Origin: a virus
Direction: 5' to 3' (one strand)
DNA length: 25,432 nt
IMG/VR virus record: IMGVR_UViG_3300030118_002060
Coordinates: 1 to 25,432 of that record
Below are positions 6,408 through 25,432 of this stretch, in pieces (the stretch's first letter is position 1; every line of letters begins with the position of its first letter). Below the pieces are notes generated by a model. It was not told the origin of the DNA. It worked only from the letters and a program-made list of their open reading frames with translations, and ran no database searches. A program made the position numbers and the translations under genes.

Positions 6408-7259
6408 CTATGACTCGTCCATTACGACATCGACAATGCCGTCAACATCAATCGCTACCGCGCCCATCGACAACATAGCTGTAATCAGGAAGCTAGTTTT
6501 CTCAGGCACATAGTTGATTTCTGTTTTCGGTGCGATGCCTACGGCCACACCGATGGCAGAGCGATGGAACGCAAAGCCGGTGCGGTCATTGGTTGCTAGT
6601 GGTAAACCACCTTCATCCCGGTCACCCACAACATGGAACTGAAAGCCCATCATTGCCGTGATTTCTCCGGTCACAAGATGTTTGAGCTGGGCAAAATCTG
6701 CGCTGACAGCTCTCTCATCACCAAGTAATCCAGCCAGGTTATTGGCATGAATCACAAAGTGCCGGTCAGTAGCTGGCACGTTCTTCGCGTCTAAGGCTTT
6801 CTTGGCGGCGATAATCTTACCCATATTTAGGTTCGACGCAGTAGCAGAGCCACTGGTAACAACAGTCTTGGCAACGCTTGAGCCAGCAGATGCAGTATTA
6901 AGCGCATCAATAATTATCTGGTCTTCGCGTCGGCCGATGGCGTTACCCACGACTTGCGCCAGTTCTTGCCTCTCATCAAAGTTGACCTTTTGCTGGTCGA
7001 ACACGTCCGAGTATTCCGCAGCCACGAAATTAGTAAGGCTACAGGAAACCTGGCTAAAACTAGCGTTAATAGGCACGACATCGGTGGCAGGAGTACGCAC
7101 AGAAGCTGTGCCTTTTCCAACCTTCGGGAACTTGACGGTATCACCGACAACACCCGTGCGCGTTCTGGCAGCATTACGAAGCACGGCAGAAGACTGATAA
7201 GCCTGATGCACTTCTGCTTCAAAGAGCTGAACAAACGCTGGAGATAGATTCGTTGACAT
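6408..7259 (-). CDS. Major capsid protein
   Basis: A 283-residue protein in the capsid slot between scaffold and decoration genes. It has HK97-fold capsid features seen in podovirus relatives: an N-terminal helix (LSPAFVQLFEAEVHQAYQ), a Gly-Asp 'E-loop' region with GDTVKFPKVGKGTA, a spine helix with DERQELAQVVGNAIGRREDQ, ALNTAS, and a C-terminal beta region (GMGAVAIDVDGIV type). Length is in the usual 280-350 range. The start is ATG 7259 with GAGGAG eight bases upstream; an in-frame GTG at 7268 lies inside that ribosome site and is rejected. Its about 200-nt leader holds the iteron copy and the structured RNA described separately. Confidence 0.88.
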   Translation of the reverse strand: MSTNLSPAFVQLFEAEVHQAYQSSAVLRNAARTRTGVVGDTVKFPKVGKGTASVRTPATDVVPINASFSQVSCSLTNFVAAEYSDVFDQQKVNFDERQELAQVVGNAIGRREDQIIIDALNTASAGSSVAKTVVTSGSATASNLNMGKIIAAKKALDAKNVPATDRHFVIHANNLAGLLGDERAVSADFAQLKHLVTGEITAMMGFQFHVVGDRDEGGLPLATNDRTGFAFHRSAIGVAVGIAPKTEINYVPEKTSFLITAMLSMGAVAIDVDGIVDVVMDES

Positions 7260-7296
7260 CTTTGTCACTCCTCAATTTGAACACACAAAACTTGCG

Positions 7297-7388
7297 CCTT
7301 GCGGGTTATCGGGGAGTCCCCGGCCCTGGCTACGCGAACGTCGCGCACGGTGTATTTCTACACGCCAGACCGGCCCTTACGGGTTATC
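7297..7388 (-). ncRNA. Candidate structured RNA leader of the capsid mRNA
   Basis: Read on the minus strand, the segment folds by eye into a three-way junction. A closing stem GGCC+CUGGC (7375-7372 and 7368-7364, GGU bulge) pairs with GCCAG+GGCC (7330-7322). Hairpin A is GUGUA-GAAA-UACAC (7363-7350), a GNRA tetraloop stacked directly on the stem. Hairpin B is CGCGA-CGU-UCGCG (7345-7333). A further hairpin GGGG-ACU-CCCC (7321-7311) follows. The block is bracketed by 14-nt direct repeats, CCTTRCGGGTTATC on the plus strand (7297-7310 and 7375-7388). The upstream repeat can itself form CCC-GUAA-GGG. It sits between the scaffold stop and the capsid start. Family unknown to me; function (translation control, processing) is inference. 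Confidence 0.55.
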
Positions 7389-7407
7389 AGTCTTTTTGAA
7401 CATATAC

Positions 7408-7425
7408 TACAAGCTGTAGCTTGTA
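7408..7425. repeat. Fourth iteron-like palindrome, in capsid leader
   Basis: TACAAGCTGTAGCTTGTA has 8-bp arms around a 2-nt centre. It matches the three iterons inside the initiator gene (ACAAG, 3 to 4 bases, CAGCTTGT on the minus strand). It overlaps a possible leftward promoter, minus-strand TTTACA then 17 bases then TATGTT, so it could be an operator for the capsid transcript. Confidence 0.7.
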
Positions 7426-7426
7426 A

Positions 7427-7453
7427 ACAGTCCAAACACATCATCTGGACTGT
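7427..7453 (-). promoter_or_regulatory. Hairpin after scaffold gene
   Basis: ACAGTCCA (7427-7434) and TGGACTGT (7446-7453) form a perfect 8-bp stem with an 11-nt loop, starting 7 bases after the scaffold stop codon. No U-run follows on the minus strand, so it is a poor terminator. It may be a processing or attenuation stem ahead of the capsid leader. Confidence 0.45.
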
Positions 7454-8574: not shown

Positions 8575-10133
8575 TACTCAGCCGCTTGTTGTTCTTGTTG
8601 TTGGGGTGGTGCGGCCATGCCTTGTGCCTGCATGGCAGCTTGTGCCGCCTGAATCATTTGCTGCTGTATTTCAGCGCGTTGTTGCGGAGTAGTGCGAAGA
8701 CTTGCTGGGATGCCAAGCTGGTCGGCGATGTAATCGCCAACCGCCTCCATGTTCAGCAGCATCTGACCTTGCGGCCCAAGGCTCTGGCTGACTTGCATAA
8801 ACTGCATAACCTCGCCGACTTTCTCCATATTGTTTGCCATCGCCAGCGGAGATATCGGTGTAACTTCTACCTCCAGACCATTTACTTTCAACGGCAAATC
8901 AATCTTGCCCATTTCATCCATCAGCTCTAACGTGCGCCGCACAATCGGAAACATTGTCTCAGATATAAGCCTGCCAAACGCTGACCCAAGGTTCTGGGAC
9001 AACTCAGTCAGCTTGGCATTGATTTCTGTAGCAGACCGGGCGCTCATGTTCTCCGGGGTCAGGCTCTCATCAAGCAGGGTCTTTTTAATATTGGTGCGGA
9101 GGTCATTGGCTACAATCTGAGACAATGAAGCATCCCCAGACCGGGGCAGCGGGGCAAGGGAGGGACCGCGTGGCCCCCCATTGCTCGACACGCCGATAAC
9201 AGCGCCCGGCACAATGGATATGGTCTGAGGATTTAACACGCCATCATCGACAGCGGTGAACACCCCGCCGATAGAAATGCTGGCATTTTTCAACGTTAAT
9301 TCGACAACCTTATTCAATGTTTTAATGTCAGGCAACGCGTACAGTACCGGGCCGCGCCCATATCTCTCATTACTGGCTTTCATGTACCGGCTAATGACAA
9401 ACGGAAAACTTTTCAAGTCGCGGTGTAAGAGCTTGATGTCCTCTTCCATCGTTATGACGCAATAGCTTATCTGGCCCTCTTCAGTATAGGTGGCCTCAAG
9501 CAATTCCACCGTTTCGGTCGGGTCTTCCATATATTTTTTAGCCAGCTCGTCCGGTATATCGGCATCGGGAAACTCGGCCTGGATTAGCCGGAACGGACGG
9601 CGAAACTTTCTGTAAACGGTGTCAACCGTTCCATTCGGCCCTTCGTCAAACGTAATGTGATAGCTGGGTATAGCTGTGTAGCGTATCGGCGTTAAGTCAT
9701 CGCCCGGCTGAATCAGCATCACGGCTGTACCCACAGCCAAATCAAGTAAGAACTCCCCCATCGCCAGGTCAAAGCCTGACAATCTCATAATACCGAACAT
9801 GCGCTCGGTAATAAAATCCAACCCTTGCTGCGCCTCAATCTGTCTGGCTCTTGGGATTTCGTTGCCCGGTTGCAAGCGGCACCAAGTTTGCTGAGGAGGA
9901 AACAGACTGGACTGGATGCGGTTCGCAAACCGGGCAGTCGAGTGAATGGCAGTGGAATCAAACACTCGTTTCATTTTGTTCTGACCGGGTACGCTTTGCT
10001 CGTAATAGCCGTCGTAAAGGTTTCTCATAGGCAGGGCGTACTCATACGCCTCTTCGTAAATTGCCCGCCATTGCTCCTTGTGTGTCTGAGCTTTCTTGTA
10101 TCTCTTTTTGATTTCTTTTACTGATACTTCCAT
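8574..10133 (-). CDS. Portal / head-to-tail connecting protein (T7 gp8-like)
   Basis: A 519-residue protein of the podovirus head-to-tail connector family (Head-tail_con type). The N-terminus has KEQWRAIYEEAYEYALPMRN, then KRVFDSTAIHSTARFANRIQSSLFPPQQTW, which is the family signature. Mid-protein there are WRP-type beta parts and a GRGPVLYALPDIKTLNKV segment, also conserved. Near residues 355-390 is LTPENMSARSATEINAKLTELSQNLGSAFGRL. The C-terminal 40 residues are Gln/Ala-rich. Length is normal for T7-type portals. It forms the 12-fold ring through which DNA enters and leaves. A second, unrelated portal gene lies at the right edge of this window. Confidence 0.93.
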   Translation of the reverse strand: MEVSVKEIKKRYKKAQTHKEQWRAIYEEAYEYALPMRNLYDGYYEQSVPGQNKMKRVFDSTAIHSTARFANRIQSSLFPPQQTWCRLQPGNEIPRARQIEAQQGLDFITERMFGIMRLSGFDLAMGEFLLDLAVGTAVMLIQPGDDLTPIRYTAIPSYHITFDEGPNGTVDTVYRKFRRPFRLIQAEFPDADIPDELAKKYMEDPTETVELLEATYTEEGQISYCVITMEEDIKLLHRDLKSFPFVISRYMKASNERYGRGPVLYALPDIKTLNKVVELTLKNASISIGGVFTAVDDGVLNPQTISIVPGAVIGVSSNGGPRGPSLAPLPRSGDASLSQIVANDLRTNIKKTLLDESLTPENMSARSATEINAKLTELSQNLGSAFGRLISETMFPIVRRTLELMDEMGKIDLPLKVNGLEVEVTPISPLAMANNMEKVGEVMQFMQVSQSLGPQGQMLLNMEAVGDYIADQLGIPASLRTTPQQRAEIQQQMIQAAQAAMQAQGMAAPPQQQEQQAAE

Positions 10134-13750: not shown

Positions 13751-13914
13751 TTGAAAAACTCCCTTAATAAAAAATGGTAAAATATTTTTGTGTGACCCCC
13801 CCTATACGCGCGCAGGGTGGGGAGGGGTATGGTCGCCTTTTTTTCTGCACGATTTCTGGCCGTCGTTGCCGCGCTGTACAAATTGTAGCCGACCGTCTGG
13901 TGTTTGTACATCAT
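13747..13914 (-). CDS. Small ORF (55 aa) linked by ATGA at both ends
   Basis: ATG 13914 overlaps the initiator stop as ATGA, and its own TGA overlaps the next gene's ATG, again as ATGA. In between are 55 codons starting MMYKHQTVGYNLYSAATTAR, then RAEKKATIPLPTLRAYRGG, and an aromatic tail (KIFYHFLLREFFK). The linker would otherwise be a 160-nt non-coding gap in a genome with almost none. The 3' end is AT-rich and carries the next gene's ribosome site, so the C-terminus is not very protein-like. An inverted repeat TGTACAAA...TTTGTACA (13875-13882 and 13903-13910) lies inside it. Confidence 0.5.
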   Translation of the reverse strand: MMYKHQTVGYNLYSAATTARNRAEKKATIPLPTLRAYRGGHTKIFYHFLLREFFK

Positions 13915-14852
13915 GGCATCCGCGTCCCCGCTACAACCTTGTTGATTATCCCCTGTGCATCGATTGGCTTGTCCTGTTTCTGCTTGCGTGTCACGAAGTA
14001 TTGCAGGCTTTGAGGTGGCTGCTTGTTGTTCTTGCGCTGCCAGTCCAGCAGCTTTGATGCATCTGCTATGAAGTCATCGACATCTTTGTACATACCCAGC
14101 AGCTCACGGGCCAACGCCTCCTGTCTGAGGTCATGTCGGAAGGCTACTTGCCACCTCGCCATCAGCTCATGTGAGTAGCTTATACACAGCTTTCTACAAT
14201 CAACTTCACTAGCTCTTTCCTCTATAGTTCTATGTTGTAAGTTACTTACAAGCTGTGCCTTGTGGGTTCGCACAAGCTGGGGCTTGTAGCTGGCATCTTC
14301 TTTACACAAGCTGGAGCTTGTAGGTGCAGAGTTATCCACAGCCTCTTTGGCCGCGTTTTGTTTACGTTTGGACTGCTGACCTTTGGCGCCTTTTGCGACC
14401 TGTTTGATGGTATCTTCGATGGCTTCCTGTTCCTGTTCTGGTGTCTTTGGCTGTCTCTCTGCCCAGGCTTCTACATCCTTGAAGCTCATTTTTGGGTCGT
14501 ATATGACGCGCCACAGGGCGCCTTTGTGGCCGTACTTACGCCTCTGGTCCTCTTTACGCAGCTTTTCTATGTAGCCCCACTGAACGAGGCGGTTCATGTG
14601 CTGGCTGACGGCCTGCTGGCTTGTACCCATGTATCTGGCGATGCTGGACTGGTTAACGTAGAACGTAGCGGTCCAGTTCTTTGCGTGGCCGCAGCACTTG
14701 GCGAGTATGAGCATGGCGGTCGGGAACCTTGCGAACCTTGTATCGACTATGGCTCTGCCGGGTATTACTGCGACGGGTCCGGGGCTTTGCTCTTCGCCGT
14801 GACCTTTGGGTGCATCGCGGATAGCGTCTGGCGTGATGTCACTTTTCTGCAT
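13911..14852 (-). CDS. Winged-helix replication initiator-like protein
   Basis: A 313-residue protein in three parts. Residues 35-120 form a winged helix: FPTAMLILAKCCGHAKNW, NQSSIARYMGTSQQAVSQHMNRLVQWGYIEKL (helix-turn-helix), then the wing and GALWRVIYD. Residues 130-215 are a low-complexity Lys/Gln/Ser linker. Residues 218-290 form a helical C-terminal domain (LARELLGMYKDVDDFIADASKLLDWQ, PQSLQYFVTRK). This layout resembles phage O/RepA-like initiators that load host helicase. The linker-coding DNA contains three iterons and is flanked by two DnaA boxes, strongly supporting an origin role. A plain transcription regulator is the alternative. Its start overlaps the methyltransferase end. Confidence 0.7.
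   Translation of the reverse strand: MQKSDITPDAIRDAPKGHGEEQSPGPVAVIPGRAIVDTRFARFPTAMLILAKCCGHAKNWTATFYVNQSSIARYMGTSQQAVSQHMNRLVQWGYIEKLRKEDQRRKYGHKGALWRVIYDPKMSFKDVEAWAERQPKTPEQEQEAIEDTIKQVAKGAKGQQSKRKQNAAKEAVDNSAPTSSSLCKEDASYKPQLVRTHKAQLVSNLQHRTIEERASEVDCRKLCISYSHELMARWQVAFRHDLRQEALARELLGMYKDVDDFIADASKLLDWQRKNNKQPPQSLQYFVTRKQKQDKPIDAQGIINKVVAGTRMP
14180..14340. other. Candidate replication origin inside initiator gene
   Basis: Two exact matches to the DnaA-box consensus TTATNCACA lie at 14180-14188 (TTATACACA) and 14332-14340 (TTATCCACA), same orientation. Between them are three 16-bp iterons and a relatively AT-rich stretch (14189-14247) that could serve as an unwinding element. Location within the initiator's linker region matches the lambda O/ori design. 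Only about one such DnaA box is expected by chance in a window this size. Confidence 0.7.
14248..14321. repeat. Three iterons (16-bp inverted-repeat units)
   Basis: Plus-strand copies are ACAAGCTGTGCCTTGT (14248-14263), ACAAGCTGGGGCTTGT (14272-14287) and ACAAGCTGGAGCTTGT (14306-14321). Starts are 24 and 34 bases apart, a difference near one helical turn. On the minus strand all share ACAAG, then 3 to 4 variable bases, then CAGCTTGT. Preceding the first is GTAAGTTACTTAC, another near-perfect palindrome (14237-14249). Confidence 0.85.
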
Positions 14853-15988: not shown

Positions 15989-16204
15989 CTAATACTTTGC
16001 CAAGTGGCTCTGGATGCGTTGCACGGTTGTTAGATTGACCACCTTGTAGTTTACCTTTTTACCGGGCTTGGCATTGAGATAGGTGCGGGTTGCGCGCGGG
16101 TTGTCACGCGATGCGGCGAGGGGATTGACACTGTGAACACGGTCATTCAGCGAGGCCAGCTCTGCTTTGAACTGTTCCAAAGTCATGTCAGCCGCATCTT
16201 TCAT
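15989..16204 (-). CDS. Small basic protein of unknown function (71 aa)
   Basis: A 71-residue protein starting in an ATGA overlap with the DnaA-like gene. It has an N-terminal helix (MTLEQFKAELASLNDRVHSV), a polar middle, and a basic end (NAKPGKKVNYKVVNL, TTVQRIQSHLAKY). I do not recognise a family. Coupled to the DnaA-like gene and close to other DNA-related genes, so a DNA-linked role is possible but unproven. Confidence 0.65.
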   Translation of the reverse strand: MKDAADMTLEQFKAELASLNDRVHSVNPLAASRDNPRATRTYLNAKPGKKVNYKVVNLTTVQRIQSHLAKY

Positions 16205-16509
16205 GGCCGGTCATCCAGCTCTTGCCTGACCGTGTCATAGGCTTGCTGCCACTCCCGCGATTCAGCCATACGCTCACGGTATTTCTTGCAGCCAGACCAC
16301 ACGGTTGTATGGTCCCGGTTCAGTGCATTGCCGATATCCGGCAGGGACTGGTAGGTCAGCTCATAGCACAGCAAATAGATAAGCTGACGCCACTGGGCAA
16401 GGTCGCGCACCCGGCACCGGCCCAGCAATGCGCGGGTGTCAATGCCCGAGTAAAGACTGACCGCAATCACAACGTCGCGGACTTGTACCTTTGGGGCGAT
16501 ATCTCGCAA
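16201..16509 (-). CDS. DnaA domain IV-like protein
   Basis: The conserved part reads YSGIDTRALLGRCRVRDLAQWRQLIYLLCYELTYQSLPDIG then NRDHTTVWSGCKKY. It matches the DNA-binding domain IV of DnaA, including the RDHTTV signature and the SLPEIG helix. No AAA+ or N-terminal DnaA domain is present, so it could bind DnaA boxes but not hydrolyse ATP. The start is uncertain. GTG 16470 overlaps the DUF1064 stop as GTGA but clips the first helix. TTG 16509 (chosen) keeps the helix but has a poor ribosome site. ATG 16668 would overlap DUF1064 by about 200 nt. A -1 shift at 16543-16550 is another entry route. Confidence 0.75.
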   Translation of the reverse strand: MRDIAPKVQVRDVVIAVSLYSGIDTRALLGRCRVRDLAQWRQLIYLLCYELTYQSLPDIGNALNRDHTTVWSGCKKYRERMAESREWQQAYDTVRQELDDRP

Positions 16510-16841
16510 ATCCTCACACCGGGATACAAAGCTTCGACCAGCTTTTTTTTCAGCCGGTAGATGTCCGTCCGAAATCCCTTCACGTCCTCGACTACCTGGC
16601 ACCCAGCTTGTCCGTCTGGCCCGGTGGCTGTTGAGTCCAGATATCTGAAATCTGCTATGTAATCGCATACCTTCTTCCCCCCTATCGCGCAGCGTATGCG
16701 CGGATGTATTTCCAAGTGACTGATTTCGCCAGCATCCAGCCGGGGTTTCAGTGTGTATTTGTAGTGCTTGGCCTCAGCCAGACTGTCGAAAGTGTAGCCA
16801 TCGAGGCTGACCTTCTTGTTTTTAAATTTGCTACGCGACAC
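16467..16841 (-). CDS. DUF1064 nuclease-like protein
   Basis: A 124-residue protein with the DUF1064 pattern: KKVSLDGYTFDSLAEAKHY, then LKPRLDAGEISHLEIHPRI, DYIADFRYLD, VVEDVKGFRTDIYRLKKKL and a last strand VRICEI. The Glu in SLAEAKHY, the Asp in YIADF and the Glu/Lys of VEDVKG are spaced as in small PD-(D/E)XK-like nucleases, so a junction- or end-processing nuclease is plausible. The start is GTG 16841, overlapping the end of the regulator gene by 11 nt. Codons CTG AAA AAA AAG inside it make an A8 run discussed as a possible frameshift site. Confidence 0.85.
   Translation of the reverse strand: MSRSKFKNKKVSLDGYTFDSLAEAKHYKYTLKPRLDAGEISHLEIHPRIRCAIGGKKVCDYIADFRYLDSTATGPDGQAGCQVVEDVKGFRTDIYRLKKKLVEALYPGVRICEISPQRYKSATL
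16543..16550 (-). other. A8 slippery run: possible -1 frameshift DUF1064 to DnaA
   Basis: On the coding strand the run reads CTG AAA AAA AAG in the DUF1064 frame, compatible with A-AAA-AAG-type slippage. Slipping back one base enters the frame of the DnaA domain, which is open from 16668 to 16201. The DnaA-like ORF has no convincing start of its own, so a fusion product is plausible. This is inference. Confidence 0.35.
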
Positions 16842-24100: not shown

Positions 24101-25432
24101 CTATTGTTTCTTTAGTAGTTCTCTCTCCATTGCAGACTGAATACGTGCTTGGGTCTGTTTTTCCTGACTGGCCAGTTTCTGTTGGAATTGTGATGCCCGC
24201 ATCTGCTGGTTCTGTGCGTCAAGGTTGAGCTTGGCAGCCTCATTCTGAGCATCCGCCTGCTCTGACTGAGCTCTAATTTGTAGCTCCTGCTCTTTCAGTT
24301 TAACCAGTGGGTCTGGCCCCTGATTAGATACCTGCTGAGACATCTGCTTAACCATCTGCATACCCTCGGCAACAAACTGCGCCGTCAGGCCCTCTATGGC
24401 CAACATCTCTTCTTCTGTGGCAGCCGCACCGCCCGTAGCTTGTCTTTGTTGTATAAACTGCACCGCCGCACGTTCTCGCGCTGCAATCTTCACATGTTCC
24501 ATAACGTGCTTCTGCAAAGCCATCGCAATGGCAGGCATCCCGCCCACCATAGGTGTAGACCCAAACACCAAGTGCGCCATGATATGCGCCTCATGCTCCT
24601 GACCCTCAAACGCCTGCAACGGCACCATGTCCAAAGCGTCTATGTTTTCCTGCGCCGGATCTTTTGGTTCCGGCTCCTCATCAGGAATACGCTTCATTAT
24701 CCTGTCGGTGTCTTTTACACCCAGAGCCTCATACATGTCTTTGTAGACCTCGTACATGTTATGAAGCTCTGGGGCCGCCCCCGCCAGTTGCAGCTTGGTT
24801 TGCGCTAATGCAATCCGTTGCGCCTGACTAAACATATTGGGATCAGATACCGGAATTACATCAATCCGGTCATCAAAATCACTCGCCATCACCGCAGACT
24901 CTGCACCCTCTACGGTATACGGATACTCTTGCGGCAGGCTCTCTGACATTACCCGTGCCAGCATTTTGAACTCAATTCTCATAGCGTAGTGCAAGCGTTT
25001 ATGCACCGCACTCATCACACGAGACCCCTGTTCCAGCATCGCGATAGTCGTACCCACCGCAGCCTGCTGGTTTCCGTCTCCAACCTTCAAATCCGTAATC
25101 GTCGCGAAGCGCTGACCTGCCTGAACCACGAACCCAAGTAAGTTAAACAGCGTTGCATCGGGCCCCTTAAATGGCAGCGGCATCAGGCTGTCACGAATAG
25201 CCCCTCCGGGAGCGTCCACATCGCGAAACTCACCGGGCTGCAACGGGTCATCGTCGTCTCTGATCCGCAGTCCGCGGGCTTTGAAGCCCGCTGGGAGGTT
25301 GGACAACGTGCCAGCGTCGATTAACTGTCGCAGTGCCGCTGTGGCGGTCCGTGACAGCCCGCCAATCGTGTGAATTAGCCCTAATCCGTAAAAACCAAAG
25401 CCCGGAAGGAACTTATAATGCACAAAATACTG
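24101..25432 (-). CDS. P22-type portal protein, partial (N-terminus off right edge)
   Basis: The frame is open to the right edge and gives 443 residues; the N-terminus is missing. It reads YFVHYKFLPGFGFYGLGLIH, then LRQLIDAGTLSNLPAGFKARGLRIR, DATLFNLLGFVVQAGQRFA, AAVGTTIAMLEQGSRVMSAVHKRLHYA and DDRIDVIPVSDPNMFSQAQRIALAQTKLQLA. These are hallmarks of P22-like portals in marine phages. The tail (about 110 residues) is Gln/Ala-rich and coiled-coil-like, like a portal barrel. A full member would be about 700 or more residues, so less than two thirds is present. This is a different family from the T7-type portal at 8574-10133, which makes the pair odd. Family assignment is from recognition, not from a search. 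Confidence 0.85.
   Translation of the reverse strand, partial: QYFVHYKFLPGFGFYGLGLIHTIGGLSRTATAALRQLIDAGTLSNLPAGFKARGLRIRDDDDPLQPGEFRDVDAPGGAIRDSLMPLPFKGPDATLFNLLGFVVQAGQRFATITDLKVGDGNQQAAVGTTIAMLEQGSRVMSAVHKRLHYAMRIEFKMLARVMSESLPQEYPYTVEGAESAVMASDFDDRIDVIPVSDPNMFSQAQRIALAQTKLQLAGAAPELHNMYEVYKDMYEALGVKDTDRIMKRIPDEEPEPKDPAQENIDALDMVPLQAFEGQEHEAHIMAHLVFGSTPMVGGMPAIAMALQKHVMEHVKIAARERAAVQFIQQRQATGGAAATEEEMLAIEGLTAQFVAEGMQMVKQMSQQVSNQGPDPLVKLKEQELQIRAQSEQADAQNEAAKLNLDAQNQQMRASQFQQKLASQEKQTQARIQSAMERELLKKQ

What the first reader, a model, noticed from the sequence alone, without database searches (positions are those of the whole stretch)
14180..14340. Lambda-ori-like origin: iterons and DnaA boxes inside the initiator gene
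Three 16-bp inverted-repeat units (14248, 14272, 14306) fall exactly in the bases coding for the low-complexity linker of a winged-helix initiator-like protein. Two perfect TTATNCACA boxes bracket them at 14180 and 14332. The lambda O gene has iterons in the same kind of place, but the addition of DnaA boxes and a phage DnaA-domain protein would make this a hybrid origin.
Basis: partly seen in the sequence, partly recalled or inferred. Interest (0 to 1): 0.8.

Follow-up and report, generated by a model that had tools for sequence, protein, structure and literature searches.

The report
Lambda-type phage origin inside initiator gene
A marine phage carries its replication start site inside the gene for the protein that starts replication, and related phages keep one extra copy of the same protein-binding site in the promoter region of the capsid gene, which would let the replication protein also control when capsids are made.

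Summary
The three 16-bp palindromes (14248, 14272, 14306) and both perfect DnaA boxes (14180, 14332) are present and lie in the disordered linker of a 313-aa winged-helix O-like protein.

Eighty relatives found by peptides outside the repeats keep them: 77 of 79 with an intact linker have at least two units. Units are read in all three frames. Synonymous codons are frozen in the zone (29/29 versus 103/176 elsewhere). About 60 AT-rich bp follow the last unit. DnaA boxes sit 18-42 bp before the first unit in 26 of 35 non-redundant members. In two separate lineages the half-site changes from ACAAG to ACAAC where recognition-helix residue 84 changes from Q to R or K.

This is a lambda-type origin bound by its own initiator. 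Conserved DnaA boxes and an encoded DnaA domain IV protein make it a variant.

Not in the finding: a single distal unit (window 7409-7424) lies 6.4-7.7 kb away, upstream of the major capsid gene, in 28 of 31 records that hold the region, between TTTACA and a -10-like hexamer. In one R84 record it carries the same swap as its origin. I infer the initiator also controls capsid transcription. Everything is computational.

The parts
13911..14852 (-). Initiator gene, 313 aa: winged-helix N domain, disordered linker, helical C domain
   Evidence: MarR_2 8e-8 and HTH_36 5e-6; PHROG 270 replication initiation protein 1.6e-8, PHROG 391/345 O-like; AF2 model: N domain and C domain confident, linker about 157-211 below pLDDT 50
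14332..14340 (+). DnaA box 1 (TTATCCACA), 19 bp (start to start, gene direction) before the first iteron
   Evidence: 26/35 non-redundant relatives have a perfect box in the 50 bp before the first iteron; 36 boxes there against 5 in 215 kb outside the gene
14306..14321 (.). Iteron 1 (gene order), ACAAGCTGGAGCTTGT, 7-bp arms fully complementary
14272..14287 (.). Iteron 2, ACAAGCTGGGGCTTGT; 34 bp from iteron 1
14248..14263 (.). Iteron 3, ACAAGCTGTGCCTTGT; 24 bp from iteron 2 (24 bp is the commonest spacing in the family)
14189..14247 (.). AT-rich tract, 34% GC counted from the sequence; candidate DNA unwinding element
   Evidence: family mean GC 0.24-0.30 in the first 60 bp after the last iteron against about 0.48 elsewhere in the gene, 34 genes
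14180..14188 (+). DnaA box 2 (TTATACACA), beyond the AT-rich tract
   Evidence: kept in L003, L218, L223 at the same offset
16204..16668 (-). Standalone DnaA domain IV protein (domain at 16282-16476); the upstream part of the ORF overlaps the DUF1064 gene, so the true start is uncertain
   Evidence: PF08299 1e-16, 7.5e-19 in the genome search; present in 23/33 related records
7409..7424 (.). Distal single iteron, ACAAGCTGTAGCTTGT, 156 bp upstream of the major capsid ORF
   Evidence: 28/31 records that hold the region have it
7399..7427 (-). Candidate capsid promoter: TTTACA (7427-7422), 17-bp spacer holding the iteron, TATGTT (7404-7399)
   Evidence: 27/28 aligned distal sites have TTTACA, 1/28 TATACA, with a TA-rich hexamer near 17 bp; activity not tested
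6408..7268 (-). Major capsid protein gene, controlled by the candidate operator in the model
   Evidence: PHROG 3437 major head protein 2e-50

Best explanation
A lambda-type replication origin inside the initiator gene. The 313-aa winged-helix protein binds, probably as dimers, the three palindromic iterons in the DNA that encodes its own linker; the adjacent AT-rich tract opens; and the helical C domain recruits the host helicase, directly or through a loader. DnaA boxes on both sides bring in host DnaA and/or the phage's own DnaA domain IV protein to help or regulate opening. A single further iteron about 7 kb away lies between the -35-like and -10-like hexamers upstream of the major capsid gene. 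There the initiator most likely represses capsid transcription, perhaps until replicated origins titrate it away. Shown by sequence: position, conservation, phasing, DNA-level constraint, specificity covariation, and the distal site carrying the same base swap in one record. Inferred: actual binding, unwinding, helicase loading, the part played by DnaA, and the sign and timing of capsid control. The confidence given is for the origin; the capsid control is scored in the section on the most novel reading.
For: (1) The family is O-like or replication initiation by PHROGs in 24/25 members. (2) 80 homologues found without using the iterons: 66 have at least 2 strict units, and 77 of 79 with an intact linker have at least 2 units by the relaxed pattern. 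(3) Units are encoded in three frames (HKPQLV, QAPAC, TSSSLC), so the DNA rather than the peptide is conserved. (4) Synonymous codons identical 29/29 in the box and iteron zone and 10/10 in the AT-rich zone, against 103/176 elsewhere, window versus L003. (5) Spacings cluster at 24, 33-34 and 44-45 bp, steps of about one helical turn. (6) AT-rich tract after the last unit. (7) DnaA boxes 36 in the 50-bp zones against 5 in 215 kb; Val-Asp codons there are GTG GAT in 65/67; L249 has two boxes in the opposite orientation. (8) Half-site ACAAG to ACAAC in every unit with Q84R (L232 clade) and, separately, Q84K (L255); their tree neighbours keep Q84 and ACAAG; 84 lies in predicted helix 79-92. (9) Distal iteron upstream of the capsid gene in 28/31 records; record G009 (R84) has the C-type version.
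Against: No binding, unwinding or origin activity has been measured. The protein has no relative by tblastn in 50,697 phage records, so nothing experimental carries over. DnaA boxes are missing in several clades that keep iterons (L008, the R84 clade, L258), so they are not essential. The codon identity of VD[KN] and many counts come from related sequences and are not independent. The C-type distal site together with a C-type origin rests on one record. The AF2 whole-chain model has pTM 0.39, and PDB matches are generic MarR folds.
Confidence: 0.9

Rival explanations
1. The palindromes are operators of a transcription regulator (the winged-helix protein as a MarR-like repressor, or another factor), not an origin; the copy at the capsid promoter is the main site and those in the gene give autoregulation.
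For: The N domain matches MarR families best; the distal copy sits in a promoter-like spacer.
Against: The in-gene units lie mid-gene, not at a promoter, and are followed by an AT-rich tract and flanked by DnaA boxes in most relatives; PHROG matches are replication initiators; the C domain is long and conserved.
Confidence: 0.06
2. The repeats follow from a repetitive linker peptide (KPQLV repeats) and have no DNA function.
For: The commonest frame gives HKPQLV/YKPQLV, and low-complexity linkers often repeat.
Against: Other units of the same genes are read in other frames (QAPAC, TSSSLC); synonymous sites are frozen; one copy is intergenic; palindromy is kept through symmetric base changes.
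Confidence: 0.01
3. The distal iteron is not an operator but a copy-number (handcuffing) or partition-like site that pairs with the origin.
For: Iteron plasmids use extra iterons for handcuffing (own knowledge); the distance is similar among records (6.4-7.7 kb).
Against: The similar distance follows from shared gene order; TTTACA and the TA-rich hexamer are kept around it in nearly all 28 sites, which a looping site would not need.
Confidence: 0.2
4. The DnaA boxes reflect host DnaA acting on nearby transcription rather than in origin opening, as reported for lambda.
For: Lambda has DnaA-protected box-like sites downstream of pO near ori (PMC3985674); some clades lack boxes.
Against: The boxes abut the iterons and AT-rich tract at near-constant phase rather than a visible promoter; not excluded.
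Confidence: 0.35

Closest known systems
Bacteriophage lambda ori / O protein (lambdoid and Stx phages)
   Same: Origin in the middle of the initiator gene, several palindromic iterons of similar length, adjacent AT-rich tract (PMC7466680; PMC3985674).
   Different: Different iteron sequence and irregular 24/34/45-bp spacing; DnaA boxes next to the iterons; an encoded DnaA domain IV protein; an extra iteron in the capsid promoter region; no lambda P-like gene identified here.
Iteron plasmid origins with DnaA boxes (pSC101, P1, F type; own knowledge)
   Same: Iterons, DnaA boxes and an AT-rich unwinding tract; initiators that also bind inverted repeats to repress transcription.
   Different: Here the origin is inside the initiator gene, the iterons are palindromes, and the outside repeat is at a structural gene about 7 kb away.
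Methylophilales (OM43) phage MEP301 (PMC8024684)
   Same: Large terminase 64% identical; similar gene content (YqaJ, ERF-type recombinase, capsid block).
   Different: Its distant winged-helix relative gp55 (201 aa, profile E 4e-9) has no iterons in the gene, and the record has no iteron-like site upstream of the capsid gene.

Membership tests
Lambda-type (O protein/ori-in-gene) replication origin | Repeated initiator-binding iterons inside the initiator coding sequence | tested here: met
   binding itself not tested
Lambda-type (O protein/ori-in-gene) replication origin | AT-rich tract directly beside the iterons | tested here: met
   family mean GC 0.24-0.30 in the 60 bp after the last iteron; 34% in the window
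Lambda-type (O protein/ori-in-gene) replication origin | Initiator homologous to O-like families | tested here: met
   PHROG 270 in 24/25, O-like PHROGs 391 in 19/25 and 345 in 16/25; matches are modest (E 1e-4 to 1e-9)
Lambda-type (O protein/ori-in-gene) replication origin | Initiator recognises the iterons specifically | tested here: inconclusive
   Covariation of residue 84 with the half-site in two lineages is strong but indirect
Lambda-type (O protein/ori-in-gene) replication origin | Replication starts there in vivo and needs helicase loading by the initiator or a loader | not testable with these tools
   needs experiments; no loader gene identified
Iteron plus DnaA-box hybrid origin | Consensus DnaA boxes conserved next to the iterons | tested here: met
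   26/35 non-redundant members; absent in some clades
Iteron plus DnaA-box hybrid origin | DnaA binds the boxes and is needed | not testable with these tools
   needs footprinting and dnaA mutants
MarR family regulator | Winged-helix dimer that binds palindromic operators in promoters | tested here: inconclusive
   N domain matches MarR_2/HTH_36 and MarR folds, and one site is promoter-like, but the 313-aa architecture and in-gene sites fit an initiator

The most novel reading that the evidence does not exclude
In this phage group the replication initiator is also the regulator of the major capsid promoter, through one dedicated iteron placed between -35 and -10. As origins multiply, initiator is titrated off that operator and capsid synthesis switches on, so genome copy number itself times the change from replication to virion assembly.
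Probability: 0.45. Interest if true: 0.78.

Novelty: new variant of a known kind. Interest (0 to 1): 0.62.

Why it matters
It defines, by sequence conservation, a family of lambda-type origins in uncultured, apparently marine phages, with a natural specificity swap (Q84R/K with ACAAG to ACAAC) that predicts which residue reads which base. The conserved single iteron at the capsid promoter would tie DNA replication directly to capsid synthesis through one protein and makes that link testable with a simple reporter assay.

Tried and rejected
Relatives of the initiator in cellular genomes: none; the iteron pattern in genomes hits mostly dispersed repeats, the great majority of 45 stretches in one Bryobacterales MAG. 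Initiator in sequenced phages: no tblastn match, and one relative's 4.3-kb locus found nothing by blastn. A first loose pattern (three CAGCTTGT) mostly caught low-complexity genes and was replaced by the palindrome-pair pattern, whose hits were checked by reading the covering ORF. Fold search gave only generic MarR folds. GC skew follows gene strand. Strict pairing of DnaA boxes with the DnaA domain IV gene was considered and rejected: several box-less clades keep the gene. More records with both a C-type distal site and a C-type origin were sought; the 11 contigs with the C-type distal site, apart from G009 itself, do not reach the origin, though those with a capsid gene are by capsid identity all among the nearest relatives of G009 (that script stopped at a later, unrelated line). 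Rfam on the capsid leader: only a spurious E 0.17 match. Intrinsic terminator for the distal palindrome: rejected, no T-run follows. Literature for an initiator controlling a capsid promoter: nothing relevant.

Full report
What was checked. The three 16-bp units and two DnaA boxes are exactly where the finding puts them, within the 313-aa ORF 14852-13911 on the minus strand. The protein has a winged-helix N domain (MarR_2 8e-8, HTH_36 5e-6), matches replication-initiation and O-like PHROG families, and in the AlphaFold2 model has two confident parts joined by a disordered linker (residues about 157-211) which the repeats encode. Shuffling synonymous codons of this gene gave three units in 1 of 20,000 trials.

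Relatives. The window is a virus record. A protein search gave L002 (98%) and L003 (72%); small alignments reached 12 and then 80 loci. The last search used peptides around SLQYF and WGYIEKLR, outside the repeat zone, so it is a fair test of whether repeats go with the protein. Of 80, 66 carry at least two strict units; L269 ends before the linker; of the other 79, 77 carry at least two units of the relaxed form ACAA-N8-TTGT. The remaining two, L250 and L251, have one relaxed unit, and the record of L251 has three one-mismatch units at the gene. A separate scan for paired palindromes gave 65 stretches, all covered by ORFs of this family.

DNA, not peptide. Units appear in all three frames within and between genes, as HKPQLV, QAPAC or TSSSLC. 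Between the window and L003, codons for identical residues are identical 29/29 in the box and iteron zone, 10/10 in the AT-rich zone and 103/176 elsewhere; eight further comparisons point the same way in the iteron zone. Spacings between units cluster at 24, 33-34 and 44-45 bp. The first 60 bp after the last unit average 24-30% GC against about 48% over the gene; in the window the tract is 34% GC, counted.

DnaA. In 35 members below 90% identity, 26 have a perfect box in the 50 bp before the first unit; 36 boxes lie there, against 5 in 215 kb outside the gene. Where Val-Asp-Lys/Asn is encoded there, the codons are GTG GAT in 65 of 67 cases, although GTG is only about 23% of Val codons in these genes; L249 instead has two boxes in the opposite orientation. 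Relatedness inflates these counts. Some clades (L008, R84 clade, L258) have no perfect box. A standalone DnaA domain IV protein (PF08299) is encoded upstream in 23 of 33 records; some of the rest are short fragments, but a 34-kb record of the L256 clade, which also lacks boxes, has none.

Recognition. Across 35 members the fifth base of the half-site is G with Q, E or L at residue 84, C with R (L232, L235) or K (L255), and mixed with H; L250, with Q, has a single mixed unit. The two C-type lineages are separate on the tree and each has a Q84/G-type neighbour. Residue 84 is the only column within the recognition helix (79-92) that separates the classes; columns 27, 29 and 144 also do so but vary widely. 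This was found by inspection and then scanned, so it is post hoc, with two independent events.

Distal iteron. The window has one more perfect palindrome at 7409-7424, between scaffold and major capsid genes. Whole-record searches found one such copy in many relatives, 6.4-7.7 kb from the origin. Of 49 records searched with the capsid protein, 32 match; one (G048) has too little upstream DNA; of the other 31, 28 have the site. It is missing in G017, G018 and G037; the last two have E84 initiators. In all 28 the arm overlaps TTTACA (27) or TATACA (1), with a TA-rich hexamer about 17 bp on. The hexamers score mostly 5/6 and 3-5/6 against sigma-70; promoter activity was not tested. In G009, whose initiator has R84 and C-type origin units, the distal site is also C-type. 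Eleven contigs have C-type distal sites and 50 G-type ones, but those checked do not reach the origin, so the coupling rests on one record.

Mechanism. Best supported is a lambda-type origin whose initiator binds the iterons and opens the AT-rich tract. The lambda layout (iterons in O, AT-rich tract, 19-bp imperfect inverted repeats) is described in PMC7466680, and lambda itself has DnaA-box-like sites downstream of pO near ori (PMC3985674). That the initiator represses the capsid promoter is inferred from a palindrome in a promoter-like spacer; release by titration is a further guess.

Limits. All evidence is sequence-based. The host is unknown; the large terminase is 64% identical to that of OM43 phage MEP301 (PMC8024684), whose shorter winged-helix protein lacks iterons. 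The record is probably a fragment.

Noticed in passing
window 7269-7395 (-), L272-L291: Leader between the distal iteron and the capsid start codon looks like a conserved structured RNA: 16 sequences, 28 predicted pairs, 16 with changes on both sides; no Rfam family.
   Followed up: partly
window 24104-25432 and 8577-10133: Two portal-type proteins: phrog_1216 portal, cut by the window end, and a head-tail adaptor. Possible chimeric assembly or recombination at the right end.
   Followed up: no
window 16204-16841: The DnaA domain IV ORF overlaps the DUF1064 (Holliday-junction-resolvase-like) gene; its true start codon is unclear.
   Followed up: no
L173-L217: The iteron-pair pattern occurs as dispersed repeats mainly in one Bryobacterales MAG and in a few other genomes, apparently unrelated.
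   Followed up: no
window 14231-14249: A further inverted repeat, TTGTAAGTTACTTACAA, overlaps the end of iteron 3; only partly kept in L003.
   Followed up: no
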